From: Pseudidiomarina sediminum DSM 21906
GTDB taxonomy: Bacteria; Pseudomonadota; Gammaproteobacteria; Enterobacterales; Alteromonadaceae
Length of the DNA: 64,000 nt
Direction: 5' to 3'
Assembly (NCBI RefSeq): GCF_000423165.1
Contig: NZ_AUHL01000005.1
Location: 124,001-188,000, forward strand
A program made the position numbers and the translations under genes. The notes beneath the pieces were generated by a model. It saw nothing but the letters and a program-made list of their open reading frames with translations, did not search any database and had not been told where the DNA came from. Shown piece by piece: positions 34,394 through 40,106 of this stretch. Position 1 is the stretch's first letter; each line of letters starts with the position of its first letter.

Positions 34394-34421
34394 AAAAAAG
34401 CCGCTCATTGAGCGGCTTTTT
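34394..34421 (+). terminator. Intrinsic terminator after yebG
   Basis: GCCGCTC / GAGCGGC stem with an ATT loop (34400-34416), flanked by an A-run and a T-run. It ends just before the att repeat at 34430. Confidence 0.9.
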
Positions 34422-34429
34422 ATTGAATG

Positions 34430-34455
34430 TGGTGGAGCTGGCGGGAGTTGAACCC
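34430..34455. repeat. Attachment site (distal), copy of the ssrA 3' end
   Basis: 26 bp identical to 39747-39772, the last 26 bases of the tmRNA gene on the minus strand (acceptor CCA end and part of the T-arm). The two copies bound the 5.3-kb element, and the identity stops at 34456. This is the signature of site-specific integration by a tyrosine recombinase. Confidence 0.93.
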
Positions 34456-34486
34456 ATAGTAAACCCTTTTTTATTAAACAGTTAAA

Positions 34487-35050
34487 CTACTTGTGCGACT
34501 CATCGCAACTATCTGTACATTGAGTTTCGTTTGTTAAATCTACCGAAACCGTTTCAATATTGTTGAAACAGGCCAAGAGCACCGACATTCCTGACAGCAA
34601 CAAAAACATGAATGTATGGAATAATGGTGCACGCCTCGAACTAGATAGCTGTATCCCCAATATCGAGCTATCGGCACTCGCCTTTTTTATATGCTGCGTA
34701 AGTTGCACCTCTGTCATTCTTCTATTTATCTCAGACTCGACTAGTAGGCCTGCCTTCACGCTACCCAGCAAAAACGGCGTATACCATTTCACGTCTAGAA
34801 ACCAGATTACAACCCAAAACAGTGCACCAAACATCAATAATGCCGAAGCTACTGGTATACTAAAACCCGCATCTGTTAGGGTCATCTCATACCCTGAGCG
34901 AAAAGTCAAACCTGCGGCGCCCACCAACGCAGCTACAAGAATAAAGCCTAAATGCCGAACTTTCATAGCAACATCGTTAAAATGGCGCTGAGTCTCAACA
35001 ATCTCTTTCCAAACTGTGATCTGATTTTCGAGAATATCTTTATCGTTCAT
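34487..35050 (-). CDS. Three-TM membrane protein, element cargo
   Basis: 187 aa. A cytoplasmic-looking helical start (1-32) is followed by TM segments at about 33-50, 65-86 and 143-162. Between them is a roughly 55-residue charged helical region, and the tail contains two Cys. I do not recognise a family. The early TM hairpin plus amphipathic helix recalls SLATT-like membrane effectors, but this is only shape similarity. Its start overlaps the HAD gene stop (ATGA at 35047-35050), so the two are translationally coupled and probably act together. Confidence 0.72.
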   Translation of the reverse strand: MNDKDILENQITVWKEIVETQRHFNDVAMKVRHLGFILVAALVGAAGLTFRSGYEMTLTDAGFSIPVASALLMFGALFWVVIWFLDVKWYTPFLLGSVKAGLLVESEINRRMTEVQLTQHIKKASADSSILGIQLSSSRRAPLFHTFMFLLLSGMSVLLACFNNIETVSVDLTNETQCTDSCDESHK

Positions 35051-35934
35051 GCTTTTTTTTTTCTAAAGTTGATTATTTCCAAAAGCTGATCAAACCGATC
35101 TATGGTGTAATCTGGCTTCAAATGCTTACTATTCCTTTTGATTTCCTGCTCTCGCTCAACATCTGCATCGGTCCAATGAGTAACGGCTTGCAGTAGTTCA
35201 TATCTTCTATCATCCCCTTCGAAGTGGCCCGTACCATATTTCGCGAAAACAGCTGTAACGCCTGCTTGGAGGGCCATTTCTACGTCTTTCATTTCACTAT
35301 CACCCACATACACGCATTCCTCGGGCGTAGCGCCTATCTCTTTTATAATATCGAGTAATAATCGTGGATTTGGCTTTAATTCACCTTCGGGCGTATGTTT
35401 TGATTTCATAAAATCAAAGGTAATTTCGGTTCGTTGCTCTTCCTCAATCGGAACACTATGATCTGAGGGTGAATATAATATTTCAATAAAATAATCTAGG
35501 CCTAGGCGTTTGAGACGGTTCTTGGTGTACCATTCCTTTGATTCAGTATAAGCAATAACCCTTACTCGTCGAGATTTAAGTTCAGCCAAGGTGTCGTAAA
35601 CACCTTTATATAACTTTAGATGGGTCATCCTCTCACTGCGGTAAGCATGAATAGCCTCACTCAGTTCGTCATTAATTCTTTGTCTTGAGCCATATTTTTT
35701 TTGTAAAGACGGTAGTTTTTCGAGTACAAACGCATATTCCGCAGTGCCGTGCTCTCTGTGTACTGGACGAATTTCTTTTATTAATTGCTCTTTTGAAATA
35801 CCGGAGATTTCGACCACACGTTCGAGCATCGCATTAAACGAGCTGTACCAGATTTCAAACCAGTCATATAAAGTATTGTCTAAATCGGTAATGAGAACTG
35901 ACTTACTAGGTTTATACACTTGATAAAACTCCAT
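35047..35934 (-). CDS. HAD-superfamily hydrolase, element cargo
   Basis: 295 aa. All four HAD motifs are visible: DLDNT with D17 and D19 (I), T130 in AYTES (II), K187 in LKPNP (III), and D212 and D217 in GDSEMKD (IV). The inserted helical cap lies at about 25-110. It is a probable phosphatase; the substrate (nucleotide, phosphosugar or protein) is unknown. It starts 78 bp after the integrase stop with a weak ribosome site. It is the larger half of the two-gene cargo and looks more AT-rich than the chromosome around it. Confidence 0.82.
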   Translation of the reverse strand: MEFYQVYKPSKSVLITDLDNTLYDWFEIWYSSFNAMLERVVEISGISKEQLIKEIRPVHREHGTAEYAFVLEKLPSLQKKYGSRQRINDELSEAIHAYRSERMTHLKLYKGVYDTLAELKSRRVRVIAYTESKEWYTKNRLKRLGLDYFIEILYSPSDHSVPIEEEQRTEITFDFMKSKHTPEGELKPNPRLLLDIIKEIGATPEECVYVGDSEMKDVEMALQAGVTAVFAKYGTGHFEGDDRRYELLQAVTHWTDADVEREQEIKRNSKHLKPDYTIDRFDQLLEIINFRKKKA

Positions 35935-35988
35935 TTATTTTTTTATGAGTGTAACCCATGTTATGCGCGGGATAAATCCGATAAGGAT

Positions 35989-36011
35989 TAACACTGTTTA
36001 GCATAGTGTTA
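35989..36011. repeat. Hairpin between integrase and HAD genes
   Basis: TAACACT / AGTGTTA arms around a 9-nt loop in the 79-bp gap. There is no T-run on the minus strand, so it may be a processing site, operator or weak terminator between the recombination genes and the cargo. Confidence 0.4.
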
Positions 36012-36013
36012 GT

Positions 36014-37087
36014 TTAATTCCTAATCCAACGACCATAAACTTTCCAAATCATCGCACAATCTTTGTGCCCAAGTTGCTGAGCAACCCAAAGCGGGTTGCA
36101 CCCCACAGACAAAAGTGAGGACGCATAGGTATGCCTACACGCATACGGCTTTCTATATTCGACGCCGGATATTCTCACTGCGGGCACCCAGTATCGATCA
36201 CGCGGAATACTATCATTCCCCCAACGTTTGTGGGTTTTAGGATCTCGGAACACGTACCCAGTATATTCTCGTAACCTATTCAAAACTCCCAAAGCTTTTG
36301 GGTGAAGCTCATGTGTTCGGTTACTCCCTGCGGTTTTCGTACCTGCCTTGCGCCCTTTTACAATTGATTCACGAATGAAAATCACTCCACGTTCCATATC
36401 AACGTTTTCCCATCTCAAGCCGATTTGCTCTCCTGTTCTCAACCCTGTCCAGAATGCAAATTCATAAAAGTCTCGAACGTACCCCTGTGGCAATGCTGCT
36501 AAAATTCTCTCACGTTCATCGTTGTTAAAGGGCTCTACTTCTTCGCGTTCGGTTTTTAGGCGCTTAACACTTTTCATAGGATTTCGTATGAGGATGTCAT
36601 CATAAAGCAAATAATCAAACGCTTGGCTTAGTAGACTTTGTACCTCGTTAGCTGTTTTGGGGTTAAGTTTGGTTTTACGCTGCCACTCGCGAAAGTGAGA
36701 TGGTTTAAAATCGCAAACACGAATATGCCCGAAGTTTGGCAATATGTGGTTATCCATGCGGCCACTGTTCGTTTTGAGCGTACTGTAAGCCCAATTTTTG
36801 TGACTTTGCTTGAACCATTCTTCGCACATTTCAGCAATAGTAAGAAGTGCAGCTTTATTATCGGAAAATTCGAATGCCAGCTTACTCTCTGGAAATTCAC
36901 TCGCGTAGTCGAACTCACCAAAATCAATCTTCATTTGAACTCGATCACGCTTGCGTTTAACGAGTTTAAGGTTCTCGGGTGTGGGTTCGACGCGCACCGT
37001 TTCACGACAGCGACGACCTTTGAAGATAAATTCCATGCGAATCGAGTGTTTGCCAACACTGATGCCAGGATATTGAGATGCTTTCAT
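36014..37087 (-). CDS. Tyrosine integrase
   Basis: 357 aa phage-type site-specific recombinase. An N-terminal arm-binding region (GISVGKHSIRMEFIFKGRRCR) is followed by a SAM-like core-binding domain (about 80-175) and a catalytic domain (about 180-357). Active-site residues are R217 (TGLRTGE), R318-H319 (ACRHTYAS), H341 (LGHKD) and the nucleophile Y351 (VYGRW). It should integrate and excise the element at the ssrA 3' end, as the flanking 26-bp repeats show. Its ATG lies 2 bp after the stop of the AlpA/Xis-like gene, an operon arrangement. Confidence 0.93.
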   Translation of the reverse strand: MKASQYPGISVGKHSIRMEFIFKGRRCRETVRVEPTPENLKLVKRKRDRVQMKIDFGEFDYASEFPESKLAFEFSDNKAALLTIAEMCEEWFKQSHKNWAYSTLKTNSGRMDNHILPNFGHIRVCDFKPSHFREWQRKTKLNPKTANEVQSLLSQAFDYLLYDDILIRNPMKSVKRLKTEREEVEPFNNDERERILAALPQGYVRDFYEFAFWTGLRTGEQIGLRWENVDMERGVIFIRESIVKGRKAGTKTAGSNRTHELHPKALGVLNRLREYTGYVFRDPKTHKRWGNDSIPRDRYWVPAVRISGVEYRKPYACRHTYASSLLSVGCNPLWVAQQLGHKDCAMIWKVYGRWIRN

Positions 37088-37089
37088 AG

Positions 37090-37275
37090 TTAGCCCCTCT
37101 CAACCCAGCGTTCGTACTCCACGATATTAATGAAGTAGCGACGATTGCGAATTGTGAAATGTTTAGCGACCATCCAGCGGCCGTTACGGATCAGCGCGTA
37201 AACTGATTTACGAGTGAAGCCTGTTTCCTCACAGAATTTGTCGAGCTTCACCCATTTGGTAGAAGTAGTATTCAT
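37090..37275 (-). CDS. AlpA/excisionase-like DNA-binding protein
   Basis: 61 aa from ATG 37275. It has a winged HTH of the MerR/AlpA type (WVKLDKFCEETGFTRKSVYA, then GRWMVAKHFTIRNRRYFIN). Such proteins direct excision or switch on integrase genes. The frame stays open upstream to 37575, but the extra part (rich in Arg/Thr/Leu, no motif) looks non-coding; the ribosome site at 37275 is weak, so the start is uncertain. It is immediately followed by the integrase. Confidence 0.75.
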   Translation of the reverse strand: MNTTSTKWVKLDKFCEETGFTRKSVYALIRNGRWMVAKHFTIRNRRYFINIVEYERWVERG

Positions 37276-37595
37276 TTGCAGTACCAATAGCCTCGTGGCT
37301 ATCTTTGATAGCCAGATTAGTCCTAATGCAGCACGGCAAATAGCCGAGCGCATATCGCGAGTGAGACTGCCATTGGTAGTAAAATGAATTGTATAAAAAC
37401 AATAAAGGATTTGCGTTTTAGGACTATGGGGGCCGTTTAGGTTATCGTATCGTTCAAGCGGTTTAAGTCTATCGGACCGAGTTTTAGGTGCTGCCCCTGC
37501 ATGGCACTGTGTATTTTTCCAAATATGTCTTTGAGTCTGCAATGTGTCGTTTTCTGACAGTCTCGAAGCAAACATAATCCAACCTCAACAATCTG
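37276..37595. other. Non-coding stretch inside the element
   Basis: About 320 bp with no gene I can support. It probably holds the promoter of the Xis/integrase operon. I saw no clear repeat or promoter pair. Confidence 0.4.
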
Positions 37596-37829
37596 TCAAC
37601 ACTCTATCGTAAACTTTGTAAAGAGTTCGAGTTTGGTGAATTGCTTGACGCATGACTGAAATTTCACAATCACTTCTACCTCATGATTCATATCTAACAC
37701 CCCGACGATGACACCAATATCTTTGATCTGATGCGTGTGATTGTTGTTTGGGTGTACCGCATGATTAATGAGCGATACCGCTTCATCATGCGTGAATATG
37801 GTGGTATCTCGGTCTACTTGATGTGTCAT
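37596..37829 (-). CDS. Small protein of unknown function in the element
   Basis: 77 aa from ATG 37829, with AGGA about 10 nt upstream. It is rich in His/Asn/Val with no motif or membrane segment. It lies between the Rep region and the Xis/integrase operon on the same strand. It might be a regulator, but no HTH is visible, and it could be a chance ORF. Confidence 0.45.
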   Translation of the reverse strand: MTHQVDRDTTIFTHDEAVSLINHAVHPNNNHTHQIKDIGVIVGVLDMNHEVEVIVKFQSCVKQFTKLELFTKFTIEC

Positions 37830-37898
37830 TTGGGGTTGTCCTATTTTTACCGTACAGTTATTTACACAAGTCCAAGGGCCACTTCAGCAATTCACCCG

Positions 37899-38055
37899 AC
37901 CTGCGGTCGGCTGAACCGCTTCAGCGGCTCAGCCTAAAACCCGATTGGCTTCATTTTTTGACTCGCATTTGTCATTTGAGCTTTTTTGAGGTCATTTGAC
38001 TTCTTTTCTTCATAAAAACCATCATTTGAACCCTTCATTGAATGAGGCCTCATTC
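37899..38055. repeat. Iteron-like and palindromic region, possible origin
   Basis: Three copies of TCATTTGA (37972, 37992, 38022) lie near a perfect 16-bp palindrome GAATGAGGCCTCATTC (38040-38055). Hairpins CGACC/GGTCG (37899-37911) and GCTGA-CCGC/GCGG-TCAGC-like (about 37911-37934) lie beside them. The region sits directly downstream of the HUH rep gene. Such clusters mark replication origins or regulatory regions of rolling-circle elements; this role is inferred. Confidence 0.5.
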
Positions 38056-38127
38056 GTGTTTCTGAATCCGCAATGTTGCAGACAGGGCGAAATCTCTTGC
38101 TTTGCAAGATACTCCTAAATCAGCGCT

Positions 38128-39690
38128 CTAATACAGCATGCCCACTCCGTCTCTGGGTTGTGGTGATTTCGACATCCAATACCATTTCTTATAACGCGTA
38201 AGCACGCCAAACAACGCGTTTCGTAAGCCAATTACTCGTGGTCGGCGAGGCTCACCATATTGGTTCAAATTGGCTAACTCATGCGCTTGCTCGTCGATGG
38301 AAGATGAAGAGTAGACGGGATGAATATCTCGCTTCGAAGTTCCACCGAAACCACCCATAGCTATACAAAATGCTGCCCAATTTGACGAATCTGCCGCGAG
38401 ACGCAATTCTTCTAGTGTTTCATCTTTGACGCTATGCGAGAGTCTACGCAACTCTCTCCAAACGGTTACACTTGGCCCACCTATTTGTGCAAACTTACGA
38501 ATACCATGTGCTGACGCCCAAGCGCGGGTGCGACGCGCGGCTGAACGCCTACCCGCGTCGCCCTCCCTCGCGCCCTTTATGCCGTTAATGTTTTTTGCAA
38601 TGTACTTCGCCAGATACCCAGCTGCGGAGCCGCGTTCTCGGTCTATATCAACAAAGTGTGTTCTATATTTGGTTGCTCCTTTTTCATTGGGGCTATCCTG
38701 CATTGCATAGCGCTTCACGATACGTTTTAGGTGTTTAAGCTTGTCGGGTTCAACGAAAAGCAGTATATGCCAGTGCGGCGTACCATCATGATTCGGTTCG
38801 GCAACGCGCATGCCGTAGGGAGCAATTTCAGAACGTGAGAACTTAGCGCGAATAAGCTGCCATACATGGTTTAGGTACTCGTTAGCCTGTTTGGGTGATG
38901 TGCCATCGAATTTTGGATTAGGTTTACCGCTTGCCTTGAGGATAGGATGCATGCGTGACGGTGTACTAAGTGTGATCATTACACCCACATGCCCCTGATA
39001 GTCCGCAACTTGCTCGAATCCACGAATACGCACCATCCATTCTGCGAATAACACATCTGGATTCGCAATGGTATGTTCACTGACCTCTGCTAAATTAACG
39101 CTCTCACCGTCAGCGCTAACTAGTAGCGTGCGTTCAAGAAACTCTTGGCTCTTGAGTAGCGATTCTTCGAAATTCTCAAAAGTTTTGTCGCCACAATAAA
39201 GACCGCGACGAGAACTGACGAGATGCAAAGCACGCTCGGTTTCAGCTAATGCCTCATTACTTTTATGTCGAAGCCGACGCTGCCAAAATCGCTCGTCGCT
39301 TAATCGTTTCAGTATTTCATAATCGGTAAACTGCAACTCACCTAACTCATAATGTGCAAAGAGTTGGCGACACTTACCGACTGCCATAAATGGGGGATAA
39401 TCGCTTCGGTATCTACGGCATTCGTTCGCTTGGCGTTTTGCAAATGCGCGATGCGTTGAATGATCGAATAAGTCGAGATCGTCGATTTGTGCGAATGACT
39501 TTATGTTTTCAAGTAACGCAGCGGCTTTGTTCGCATCGTAATGTTCGTAGTCGCGTAAAACACGATTGAGCAGCGAATGTGCTACCGAAAAGTTGGCATG
39601 AGACGTACGTAAAGGGGGTGTTTTTTGGCTATTTAGGGGGTATTCAAGGGTACTCGCGCGAACTTCGTCGACTTGGCGAAAGAGTTGCAA
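38128..39690 (-). CDS. Phage-type HUH replication endonuclease (GpA family-like)
   Basis: 520 aa. The HUH motif TPHWHILLF carries metal ligands H306 and H308. The downstream GYLAKYIAKN carries the pair Y359 and Y363, the two-tyrosine layout of phage replication gene A proteins (P2 gpA/phiX174 A type). It should nick the origin and start rolling-circle replication of the excised element. No ATG is available near the 5' end; TTG 39690 is a guess, and the frame stays open through the att repeat into ssrA. It is the ssrA-proximal gene of the element. Confidence 0.88.
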   Translation of the reverse strand: MQLFRQVDEVRASTLEYPLNSQKTPPLRTSHANFSVAHSLLNRVLRDYEHYDANKAAALLENIKSFAQIDDLDLFDHSTHRAFAKRQANECRRYRSDYPPFMAVGKCRQLFAHYELGELQFTDYEILKRLSDERFWQRRLRHKSNEALAETERALHLVSSRRGLYCGDKTFENFEESLLKSQEFLERTLLVSADGESVNLAEVSEHTIANPDVLFAEWMVRIRGFEQVADYQGHVGVMITLSTPSRMHPILKASGKPNPKFDGTSPKQANEYLNHVWQLIRAKFSRSEIAPYGMRVAEPNHDGTPHWHILLFVEPDKLKHLKRIVKRYAMQDSPNEKGATKYRTHFVDIDRERGSAAGYLAKYIAKNINGIKGAREGDAGRRSAARRTRAWASAHGIRKFAQIGGPSVTVWRELRRLSHSVKDETLEELRLAADSSNWAAFCIAMGGFGGTSKRDIHPVYSSSSIDEQAHELANLNQYGEPRRPRVIGLRNALFGVLTRYKKWYWMSKSPQPRDGVGMLY

Positions 39691-39746
39691 CGCCTTGTTA
39701 TTGCTTGGAAAGATAGAGCCAGCGCGCGATGCGCTGACTCTGGTAT

Positions 39747-39772
39747 TGGTGGAGCTGGCGGGAGTTGAACCC
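39747..39772. repeat. Attachment site (ssrA-proximal), tmRNA 3' end
   Basis: 26-bp direct repeat identical to 34430-34455. It forms the genuine last 26 bases of ssrA, so integration restored the tmRNA gene. Confidence 0.93.
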
Positions 39773-40106
39773 GCGTCCGTAATACCTACATCCTCGGTCC
39801 TACATGCTTAGTCAGTCTTTTAGTTAATCACCAAGTCGCCGACTGACAGGCTACTTAAGGTGACGATCCCGATTGAGTTTAACGCTTTGGCTACGGGCGA
39901 AGCCTCCACGCGAGTCTGCTTTGGGGTGAACCGACTGATCCTAGTCTCACAGACAAAGCGCTAGGGGTCGGACTCAGCGGGTTATTAAGCCGCTAAAGCG
40001 TAGTTGTCGTCGTTTGCAACTATTAGTTTGAGGCTTTTTACGAGGCCAGCCTCACCTCGGCATGCACCTTGGGTTTCGTGTATTCCGTCGAATCCAGATC
40101 AGCCCC
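39747..40106 (-). ncRNA. ssrA: Transfer-messenger RNA (tmRNA)
   Basis: 360 nt, close to the 363 nt of E. coli. The 5' end GGGGCTGATC pairs with the 3' CAGCTCC-ACCA to form the acceptor stem, and the T-arm GGGTTCAACTCCCGCC is intact. The tag reading frame lies at 40017-39985 and encodes ANDDNYALAA, then stop. tmRNA rescues stalled ribosomes and tags the nascent peptide for ClpXP. A TATAGT at 40135-40130 is a plausible -10 box. The 3' end hosts the integrative element. Confidence 0.96.

What the first reader, a model, noticed from the sequence alone, without database searches (positions are those of the whole stretch)
34430..39772. Compact 5.3-kb HUH-Rep integrative element in ssrA
A 26-bp exact repeat of the tmRNA 3' end flanks a set of minus-strand genes: HUH Rep, small ORF, Xis-like, integrase and two cargo genes. 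There are no virion, packaging or conjugation genes. Insertion keeps ssrA intact. Elements this small with a phage-type two-tyrosine HUH Rep and tmRNA targeting suggest a phage or plasmid satellite that replicates alone but moves with help.
Basis: partly seen in the sequence, partly recalled or inferred. Interest (0 to 1): 0.78.

Follow-up and report, generated by a model that had tools for sequence, protein, structure and literature searches.

The report
Small mobile island beside tmRNA gene
A 5.3-kb mobile DNA island that carries its own cut-and-paste and copying genes, plus a likely virus-defence pair, sits at the end of a marine bacterium's tmRNA gene, and related islands occur at the same spot in many related bacteria.

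Summary
A 26-bp copy of the ssrA (tmRNA) 3' end bounds a 5,317-bp element in a Pseudidiomarina genome; ssrA stays intact. Relatives show empty sites, and P. salinarum has the same core with other cargo. It is not a remnant: in 395 sampled genomes of the host family, 24 (12 genera) carry its origin-like motif exactly, 22 of them directly behind ssrA. Seventeen att-bounded relatives (4.1-8.4 kb) share Rep and integrase (17 of 17) and excisionase (16 of 17), all directed like ssrA. New here: a hairpin-plus-motif replication origin at the end of Rep; an element-borne hairpin with covariation behind the tmRNA end; cargo matching the PADLOC pair Hydrolase/Hydrolase-TM; two species pairs whose elements are 88-91% alike while adjoining host DNA is 72-74% alike, best explained by horizontal movement. 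Excision, rolling-circle copying and any helper are inferred. 'Satellite' stays open: no virion gene recognised, no helper found, no free form seen. Nearest known kinds are the tmRNA islands of Pseudomonas, PICMIs and the int-xis-rep core of AICEs. New variant of a known kind.

The parts
39747..40106 (-). ssrA (tmRNA), host target gene, intact
   Evidence: ARAGORN and Rfam RF00023, 247.6 bits, full model
39747..39772 (-). proximal att copy = last 26 nt of ssrA
   Evidence: exact repeat, 0 in 100 shuffles
39715..39741 (-). element-borne hairpin 5 nt after the tmRNA CCA
   Evidence: -20.1 kcal/mol; over 9 elements 91.9% of cells paired, 5 of 11 pairs changed on both sides
38128..39690 (-). Rep, P2 gpA-type two-tyrosine HUH endonuclease (ORF 520 aa; true start probably downstream of the TTG)
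   Evidence: PF05840 E 3e-67, phrog_91 E 2e-134; motifs; codon test
37877..37936 (-). hairpin block directly upstream of the origin motif
   Evidence: block with the motif identical to P. salinarum at 83 of 88 positions (my count); fold -36.8, z -5.9
37850..37876 (-). origin motif CTTGGACTTGTGTAAATAACTGTACGG, candidate Rep nick region
   Evidence: same motif at the Rep end in 23 of 24 ssrA-type loci found through Rep; 25-mer exact in 24 of 395 family genomes, reversed control 0
37596..37829 (-). 77-aa conserved small protein, function unknown
   Evidence: HMM family with 18 members in the loci searched; no Pfam or PHROG family
37090..37275 (-). excisionase-like HTH protein (short reading from the ATG at 37275)
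   Evidence: phrog_539 excisionase E 4e-6; HMM family of 23; start
36014..37087 (-). tyrosine integrase, 357 aa
   Evidence: PF00589 and PF12167; 77% to P. salinarum
35047..35934 (-). cargo 1: HAD hydrolase, PADLOC Hydrolase (PDLC03008)
   Evidence: 407 bits
34487..35050 (-). cargo 2: membrane protein, PADLOC Hydrolase-TM (PDLC03009); overlaps cargo 1 by 4 bases
   Evidence: 114 bits; overlap
34430..34455 (-). distal att copy
   Evidence: exact repeat
34395..34421 (-). host-type ssrA terminator, at the far end of the element
   Evidence: inverted repeat with T run; the same type sits directly at ssrA in single-copy sites

Best explanation
An ssrA-specific integrative mini-replicon with a defence cargo. 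Integrase and Xis insert it into, and should excise it from, the tmRNA 3' end. The excised circle should be copied by rolling-circle replication when the two-tyrosine Rep nicks the conserved motif just behind its own gene. The HAD/TM pair is cargo, probably against phages. It has no transfer machinery that could be recognised, so it must be moved by something else, most likely phage particles. Shown by sequence: site specificity, occupied and empty sites, conserved core with exchangeable cargo, an origin-like motif that goes with this Rep subtype, and element identity above host identity in two species pairs. Inferred: excision, nicking, rolling-circle copying, cargo function, helper.
For: att and empty sites; same core in P. 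salinarum with other cargo; 17 att-bounded relatives of 4.1-8.4 kb with Rep and Int 17 of 17 and Xis 16 of 17; catalytic motifs invariant in 20 of 20 Reps; origin motif in 23 of 24 ssrA-type loci found through Rep and, with three more found by the motif itself, a stable hairpin in the 60 nt before it in 20 of 26 (z of -2 or lower); 25-mer exact in 24 of 395 genomes, reversed control 0; Rep and Int distances correlate, r 0.86, p 0.0001, 22 elements; element versus host identity 88.5 vs 71.8% and 90.8 vs 73.9% in two species pairs; cargo hits to defence models.
Against: No excised circle, empty-site read or particle-borne copy was seen. The own genome has no Zot or phrog_2 match, and the IMG/VR contigs with the exact motif are far larger than the element. 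Element and host tmRNA distances also correlate strongly (r 0.84 and 0.93), so transfer is mostly short-range. Of the four pairs that passed the filter, L091/L092 is not more alike than its host DNA (92.9 vs 96.8%), and for L120/L382 the host DNA did not align. L090 has a Rep at ssrA without motif, Xis or Int. Six of 26 origin loci have no significant hairpin.
Confidence: 0.8

Rival explanations
1. True phage satellite: a particular helper phage induces it, and its rolling-circle concatemers are packaged in the helper's particles, as PICMI115 DNA is.
For: Size, int + small regulator + replication gene + defence cargo and no virion genes match PICMI logic (PMC10803314, abstract and sections 7, 10). 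A tmRNA island is moved by a jumbo phage (PMC12595487). Defence-type cargo occurs in several relatives.
Against: No helper, packaging site or particle copy found; no resident Zot or phrog_2 match.
Confidence: 0.45
2. Integrative mobilizable element: Rep doubles as relaxase and the nicked strand leaves through a conjugative element's channel.
For: HUH endonuclease with its own nick-like site.
Against: Rep belongs to the phage gpA family, for which I know of no relaxase role (recalled); no coupling or mobilisation gene was matched.
Confidence: 0.12
3. Degraded prophage (P2-like or filamentous) that lost its virion genes.
For: Rep type is shared with P2-like and filamentous phages.
Against: Uninterrupted ORFs, exact att, and the same small gene order in 17 relatives with its own Rep and origin subtype.
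Confidence: 0.04
4. Settled defence island: once mobile, now kept for its cargo and inherited vertically.
For: Element and host tmRNA distances correlate.
Against: Patchy presence (motif in 2 of 26 genus genomes), cargo changes, and element identity above host identity in two species pairs.
Confidence: 0.15

Closest known systems
I23/I44/I55 tmRNA islands of Pseudomonas (Zhao 2025, PMC12595487)
   Same: Insert directly behind tmRNA with a direct repeat; tyrosine integrase, defence cargo, no recognised transfer genes; many encode an inovirus Gp2-like protein.
   Different: From under 20 kb to over 70 kb, with AlpA and often YqaJ and RadC; I55 is moved by a jumbo phage. Here 4-8 kb, P2-type Rep with its own origin motif, an Xis without an AlpA match, other hosts.
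PICMI satellites of Vibrionaceae (PMC10803314)
   Same: Minimal size, int + small regulator + replication gene + defence cargo, no capsid-remodelling genes; rolling-circle-like replication and concatemer packaging were reported for PICMI115.
   Different: PICMIs have a primase and always lie at fis; this has an HUH Rep and lies at ssrA.
AICEs such as pSAM2 (PMC3218068, passages)
   Same: int, xis and rep as a unit; rolling-circle Rep; mostly RNA-gene targets.
   Different: AICEs carry a conjugative DNA translocator (recalled); RepSA is not clearly related (PF20199 E 0.076).
Filamentous-phage satellites RS1 and TLC of Vibrio cholerae (recalled, no source seen)
   Same: Small integrated Rep-bearing DNA without a full virion set.
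   Different: They integrate with host XerCD at dif (recalled); this has its own integrase and targets ssrA.
P2/HP1 gpA and Vaf1-type filamentous phages
   Same: Same Rep family; P2-like prophages and some IMG/VR phage-like contigs have a related origin motif.
   Different: They encode virions; the element does not.

Membership tests
Two-tyrosine HUH Rep, P2 gpA family (PF05840) | family match, HxH and YxxxY motifs | tested here: met
   E 3e-67; H306, H308, Y359, Y363 invariant in 20 of 20
PICMI | int + alpA + prim together | tested here: not met
   no primase or AlpA match; replication gene is an HUH Rep
PICMI | integration at fis | tested here: not met
   site is ssrA
I55-type tmRNA islands | tyrosine integrase gene in an island directly behind tmRNA, direct repeats | tested here: met
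I55-type tmRNA islands | alpA or the 23-bp 3'-end sequence of the Pseudomonas set | tested here: not met
   no AlpA family in Pfam at E 0.1; the att differs by eye from the printed 23-mer
P4-like or PICI satellites | capsid-remodelling or packaging-redirection genes | tested here: not met
   none among the Pfam, PHROG and NCBIfam matches of the six genes; no dedicated satellite models were run
AICE | conjugative DNA translocator gene (recalled as defining) | tested here: not met
   no such match
Phage satellite in general | mobilised in helper particles | not testable with these tools
   needs induction and particle sequencing
Rolling-circle replicon | Rep with a cognate double-strand origin | tested here: inconclusive
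   conserved hairpin plus motif found; nicking not testable

The most novel reading that the evidence does not exclude
A family-wide lineage of ssrA-parasitic mini-replicons that also ride on ssrA transcription: the element slips its whole Rep-Xis-Int-cargo operon between tmRNA and the host terminator, puts a hairpin, mostly without a U-run, behind the tmRNA end, and uses the displaced host terminator as its own. A strong, conserved host promoter would then feed excision, replication and defence genes.
Probability: 0.2. Interest if true: 0.8.

Novelty: new variant of a known kind. Interest (0 to 1): 0.6.

Why it matters
It defines a compact class of mobile element with a recognisable origin motif, so members can be found by a 25-mer plus ssrA. 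It points to a low minimum size for integrate-replicate-defend islands and gives a tractable system for asking what moves elements that carry no recognised transfer genes. The link between Rep subtype and origin subtype, and the hairpin at the tmRNA end, are directly testable.

Tried and rejected
Tried without result: structure prediction of the 77-aa protein (not accepted); solved-structure search with the Rep profile (0 matches at E 0.01) and the 77-aa profile (one match, E 0.68); Rfam for other RNAs (only tmRNA above threshold; weaker matches taken as chance or as the tmRNA itself); the one genome-contig scan, whose patterns fell in the variable Rep N-terminus and found only P. salinarum; papers joining 'phage satellite', HUH and ssrA (0) or 'hydrolase-tm' and PADLOC (0).

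Considered and rejected: prophage remnant (conserved small family); a larger element cut short (relatives are of similar size); a settled island as the main reading (empty sites, two pairs with element identity above host identity). Sigma-70-like sites were fewer than in shuffles (5 vs 9.5), so no promoter is claimed. Charybdis elements (PMC12324425, abstract seen) have no hallmark plasmid or virus protein and were set aside.

Rows left out of counts: of the ssrA-type loci, L085, L086, L088, L089, L090, L095, L099, L109 and L383 were not among the 17 annotated (contig end, tandem, short or single att, or broken genes). Only 25 of 70 PHROG, 25 of 126 PADLOC and 25 of 31 Pfam families were displayed, so absence of virion genes is claimed only for the window's six genes and, in relatives, for the families displayed and for a phmmer comparison with selected HP1, Vaf1 and 10N.286.49.E3_PE001 structural proteins. 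That comparison gave one weak Zot match (22 bits) in L085, 7.7 kb from tmRNA; L085 has no att copy of 14 bp or more, so its limit is unknown. The measure 'further standard pair types' did not exceed its shuffles (208 of 500), and 'pairs with a change on both sides' was reached by 15 of 500.
Full report
OBSERVATION. The repeat is exact at both stated ends and absent from shuffles. ARAGORN and Rfam give a complete tmRNA at 39747-40106 on the minus strand. Between the copies lie Rep, a 77-aa ORF, an excisionase-like ORF, an integrase and two cargo genes, all on the minus strand, that is, in the direction of ssrA. Pfam, PHROGs and NCBIfam show Rep as phage gpA type, an integrase and an excisionase, and no virion, packaging or conjugation family among the six genes. 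Codon-position counts against the P. salinarum copy suggest that the first ~40 Rep codons and the first ~95 codons of the 161-aa xis ORF are not under coding constraint.

OCCUPIED AND EMPTY SITES. The tmRNA was found in 26 of 26 genomes of the genus; three (G000, G002, G006) gave a second match to its 3' end. G006 is taken to be P. salinarum ISL-52, because a named contig of the same length holds the same match; the window's genus name follows from that. G006 has the same order with Rep 67%, 77-aa ORF 58%, Xis 53% and Int 77% identical and a different cargo gene. In G010, G022 and G023 yebG, the left neighbour of the element, lies beside ssrA with one copy and no insert. In the window the usual ssrA terminator (stem plus T run) lies beyond the distal copy. 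In 12 of 16 elements the distal copy is followed by such a terminator, and 18 of the 21 single-copy genus sites printed have it directly at ssrA (my count from the listed sequences).

A FAMILY. Rep relatives occur in 102 of 395 sampled genomes of the host family. I fetched the surroundings of about half of these places. The closest Reps mostly sit directly behind tmRNA; many of the others lie at tRNA-Arg or tRNA-Met, and some in P2-like prophages. The pattern search is the cleaner count: the 25-mer origin motif is exact in 24 of 395 genomes, in 12 genera, reversed control 0 (exact rows counted by me). In 22 of the 24 it lies directly behind ssrA (and the window); one of these, G410, has a stop in Rep and no integrase match. 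One (G223) is in a tandem array about 22 kb from tmRNA. One (G130) has the distal att but no tmRNA in the 20 kb read. One further member, with one mismatch in the motif, lies in another family of the order (L339). Seventeen att-bounded relatives measure 4.1-8.4 kb: Rep and Int 17 of 17, Xis 16 of 17 at the 60-aa limit (the seventeenth has a 46-aa match), the 77-aa family in 10 of 17, and the core genes co-directional with ssrA in 17 of 17. Ten of the 17 have an extra ORF of 310-388 aa on the opposite strand between Rep and Xis; the window does not.

ORIGIN. Window and P. salinarum share an almost unchanged non-coding block downstream of Rep (83 of 88 positions, my count) while neighbouring DNA aligns poorly. 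It holds hairpins and CTTGGACTTGTGTAAATAACTGTACGG (37850-37876). In many other ssrA-type elements the motif overlaps the end of the Rep gene. Of 24 ssrA-type loci found through Rep, 23 have it and L090 does not. With three loci found by the motif itself, 26 were folded: 24 are exact over the 25-mer, L339 has one and L109 two mismatches, and the 60 nt before it fold with z of -2 or lower in 20 of 26. Reps of elements at tRNA-Arg or tRNA-Met mostly carry CTTGGAGTTCTGTAAATAASTGTAC instead, and P2-like prophages L046 and L047 a further variant inside Rep; L041 gave no match. The phiX174 record has AACTTGATATTAATAACACTATAG at its annotated origin, which shares ACTTG and AATAAC with the motif. A nick at this place is by analogy only.

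HAIRPIN BEHIND tmRNA. In 13 of 16 elements a hairpin starts 4-8 nt after the CCA; L096, L097 and L101 lack it. In nine elements like the window 91.9% of cells are paired and 5 of 11 pairs changed on both sides; 0 of 500 shuffles reach the covariation score, 15 of 500 reach the number of pairs changed on both sides, and 208 of 500 the number of pair types (the structure came from folds of these same loci). Most lack a long U-run; L040 and L093 have one. It may be a substitute terminator or an attenuator.

MOBILITY. Rep and Int distances correlate (r 0.86). Both correlate with host tmRNA (0.84, 0.93), all p 0.0001, 22 elements. This fits a core that travels as a unit and mostly within lineages. 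Four pairs passed the similarity filter. In two the element is clearly more alike than the 5 kb of host DNA before ssrA (88.5 vs 71.8% over 5.1 kb; 90.8 vs 73.9% over 4.0 kb). In one it is not (92.9 vs 96.8%). In one the host DNA did not align. The window's HAD cargo is 64% identical to that of L118 while Rep and Int are 35 and 37% identical, so cargo appears to move independently of the core.

CARGO. The window pair matches PADLOC Hydrolase and Hydrolase-TM (407 and 114 bits). Whether this pair was ever tested as a defence system I could not find. Among 73 non-core ORFs (60 aa or more) of 18 elements, displayed matches include PD-Lambda-2_B, AbiLi, a defence-type reverse transcriptase, AriA and ParE/Phd, each in one or two members, weak E1-E2-type and PDC-S12 matches in four, and three PHROG transposase families (first 25 families only).

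OUTSIDE GENOMES. In blastn searches no phage or plasmid record listed holds more than a few per cent of the element (five of ten phage records shown). The exact motif occurs in three IMG/VR contigs of 59-75 kb, far larger than the element; two of them also hold Rep and Int matches. One 16.6-kb IMG/VR contig has a diverged Rep-77aa-Xis-Int set beside genes that look filamentous-phage-like by eye (L127).

PLACE AMONG KNOWN KINDS. PICMIs need int, alpA and prim and lie at fis (PMC10803314: abstract, sections 7 and 10, passages). The Pseudomonas tmRNA islands share site, integrase, defence cargo and often an inovirus Gp2-like protein, but run from under 20 to over 70 kb and were searched for by AlpA or a 23-bp end (PMC12595487: opening with abstract, sections 6 and 9, passages). 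AICEs share int-xis-rep (PMC3218068, passages) but carry a DNA translocator (recalled). From the hitcher review (PMC11389934) I saw passages only. RS1 and TLC are recalled. I found no description of this family in the search listings; that library holds open-licence papers only.

VERDICT. A real, apparently intact, mobile element and a member of a family that I did not find described. It works like an integrative rolling-circle replicon with defence cargo. That it is a satellite is plausible but not shown.

Noticed in passing
L041 5287-12229 (G007, same genus): A second kind of small element at tRNA-Met: integrase, Rep of the same family and a protein matching PADLOC dCTPase (531 bits), bounded by a 45-bp repeat, 7.6 kb.
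   Followed up: partly
L048 6750-9666 (G002): ssrA site with an 82% identical integrase and a 309-aa cargo gene but no Rep or origin match; a host-type terminator lies directly at tmRNA and a second att 2.7 kb away near the contig end.
   Followed up: partly
L095 and L340 (G223): Tandem array at ssrA: tmRNA, about 22 kb of other DNA, then a Rep-type element with its own att.
   Followed up: partly
L346 (10,047-bp IMG/VR contig): Contig with a 61-bp terminal repeat, the same Rep family, the tRNA-type origin motif and ORFs that by eye resemble those of a tailless phage; L348 looks filamentous and has the same motif (no family search done on them).
   Followed up: no
window 37971-38029: Three TCAAATGAY repeats between Rep and the origin block, absent from the P. 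salinarum copy.
   Followed up: no
L118 8564-8974 and equivalents: In several relatives with the extra divergent ORF, a 136-142-aa ORF follows Rep in place of the 77-aa gene; that of L118 has a SEC-C motif and six of the 73 non-core proteins match SEC-C.
   Followed up: no
L094, L096, L097, L101, L115, L117, L118, L120, L381, L382: An ORF of 310-388 aa on the strand opposite to the core, between Rep and Xis; the three scanned (L094, L101, L118) have no clear Pfam family. Perhaps a regulator.
   Followed up: no
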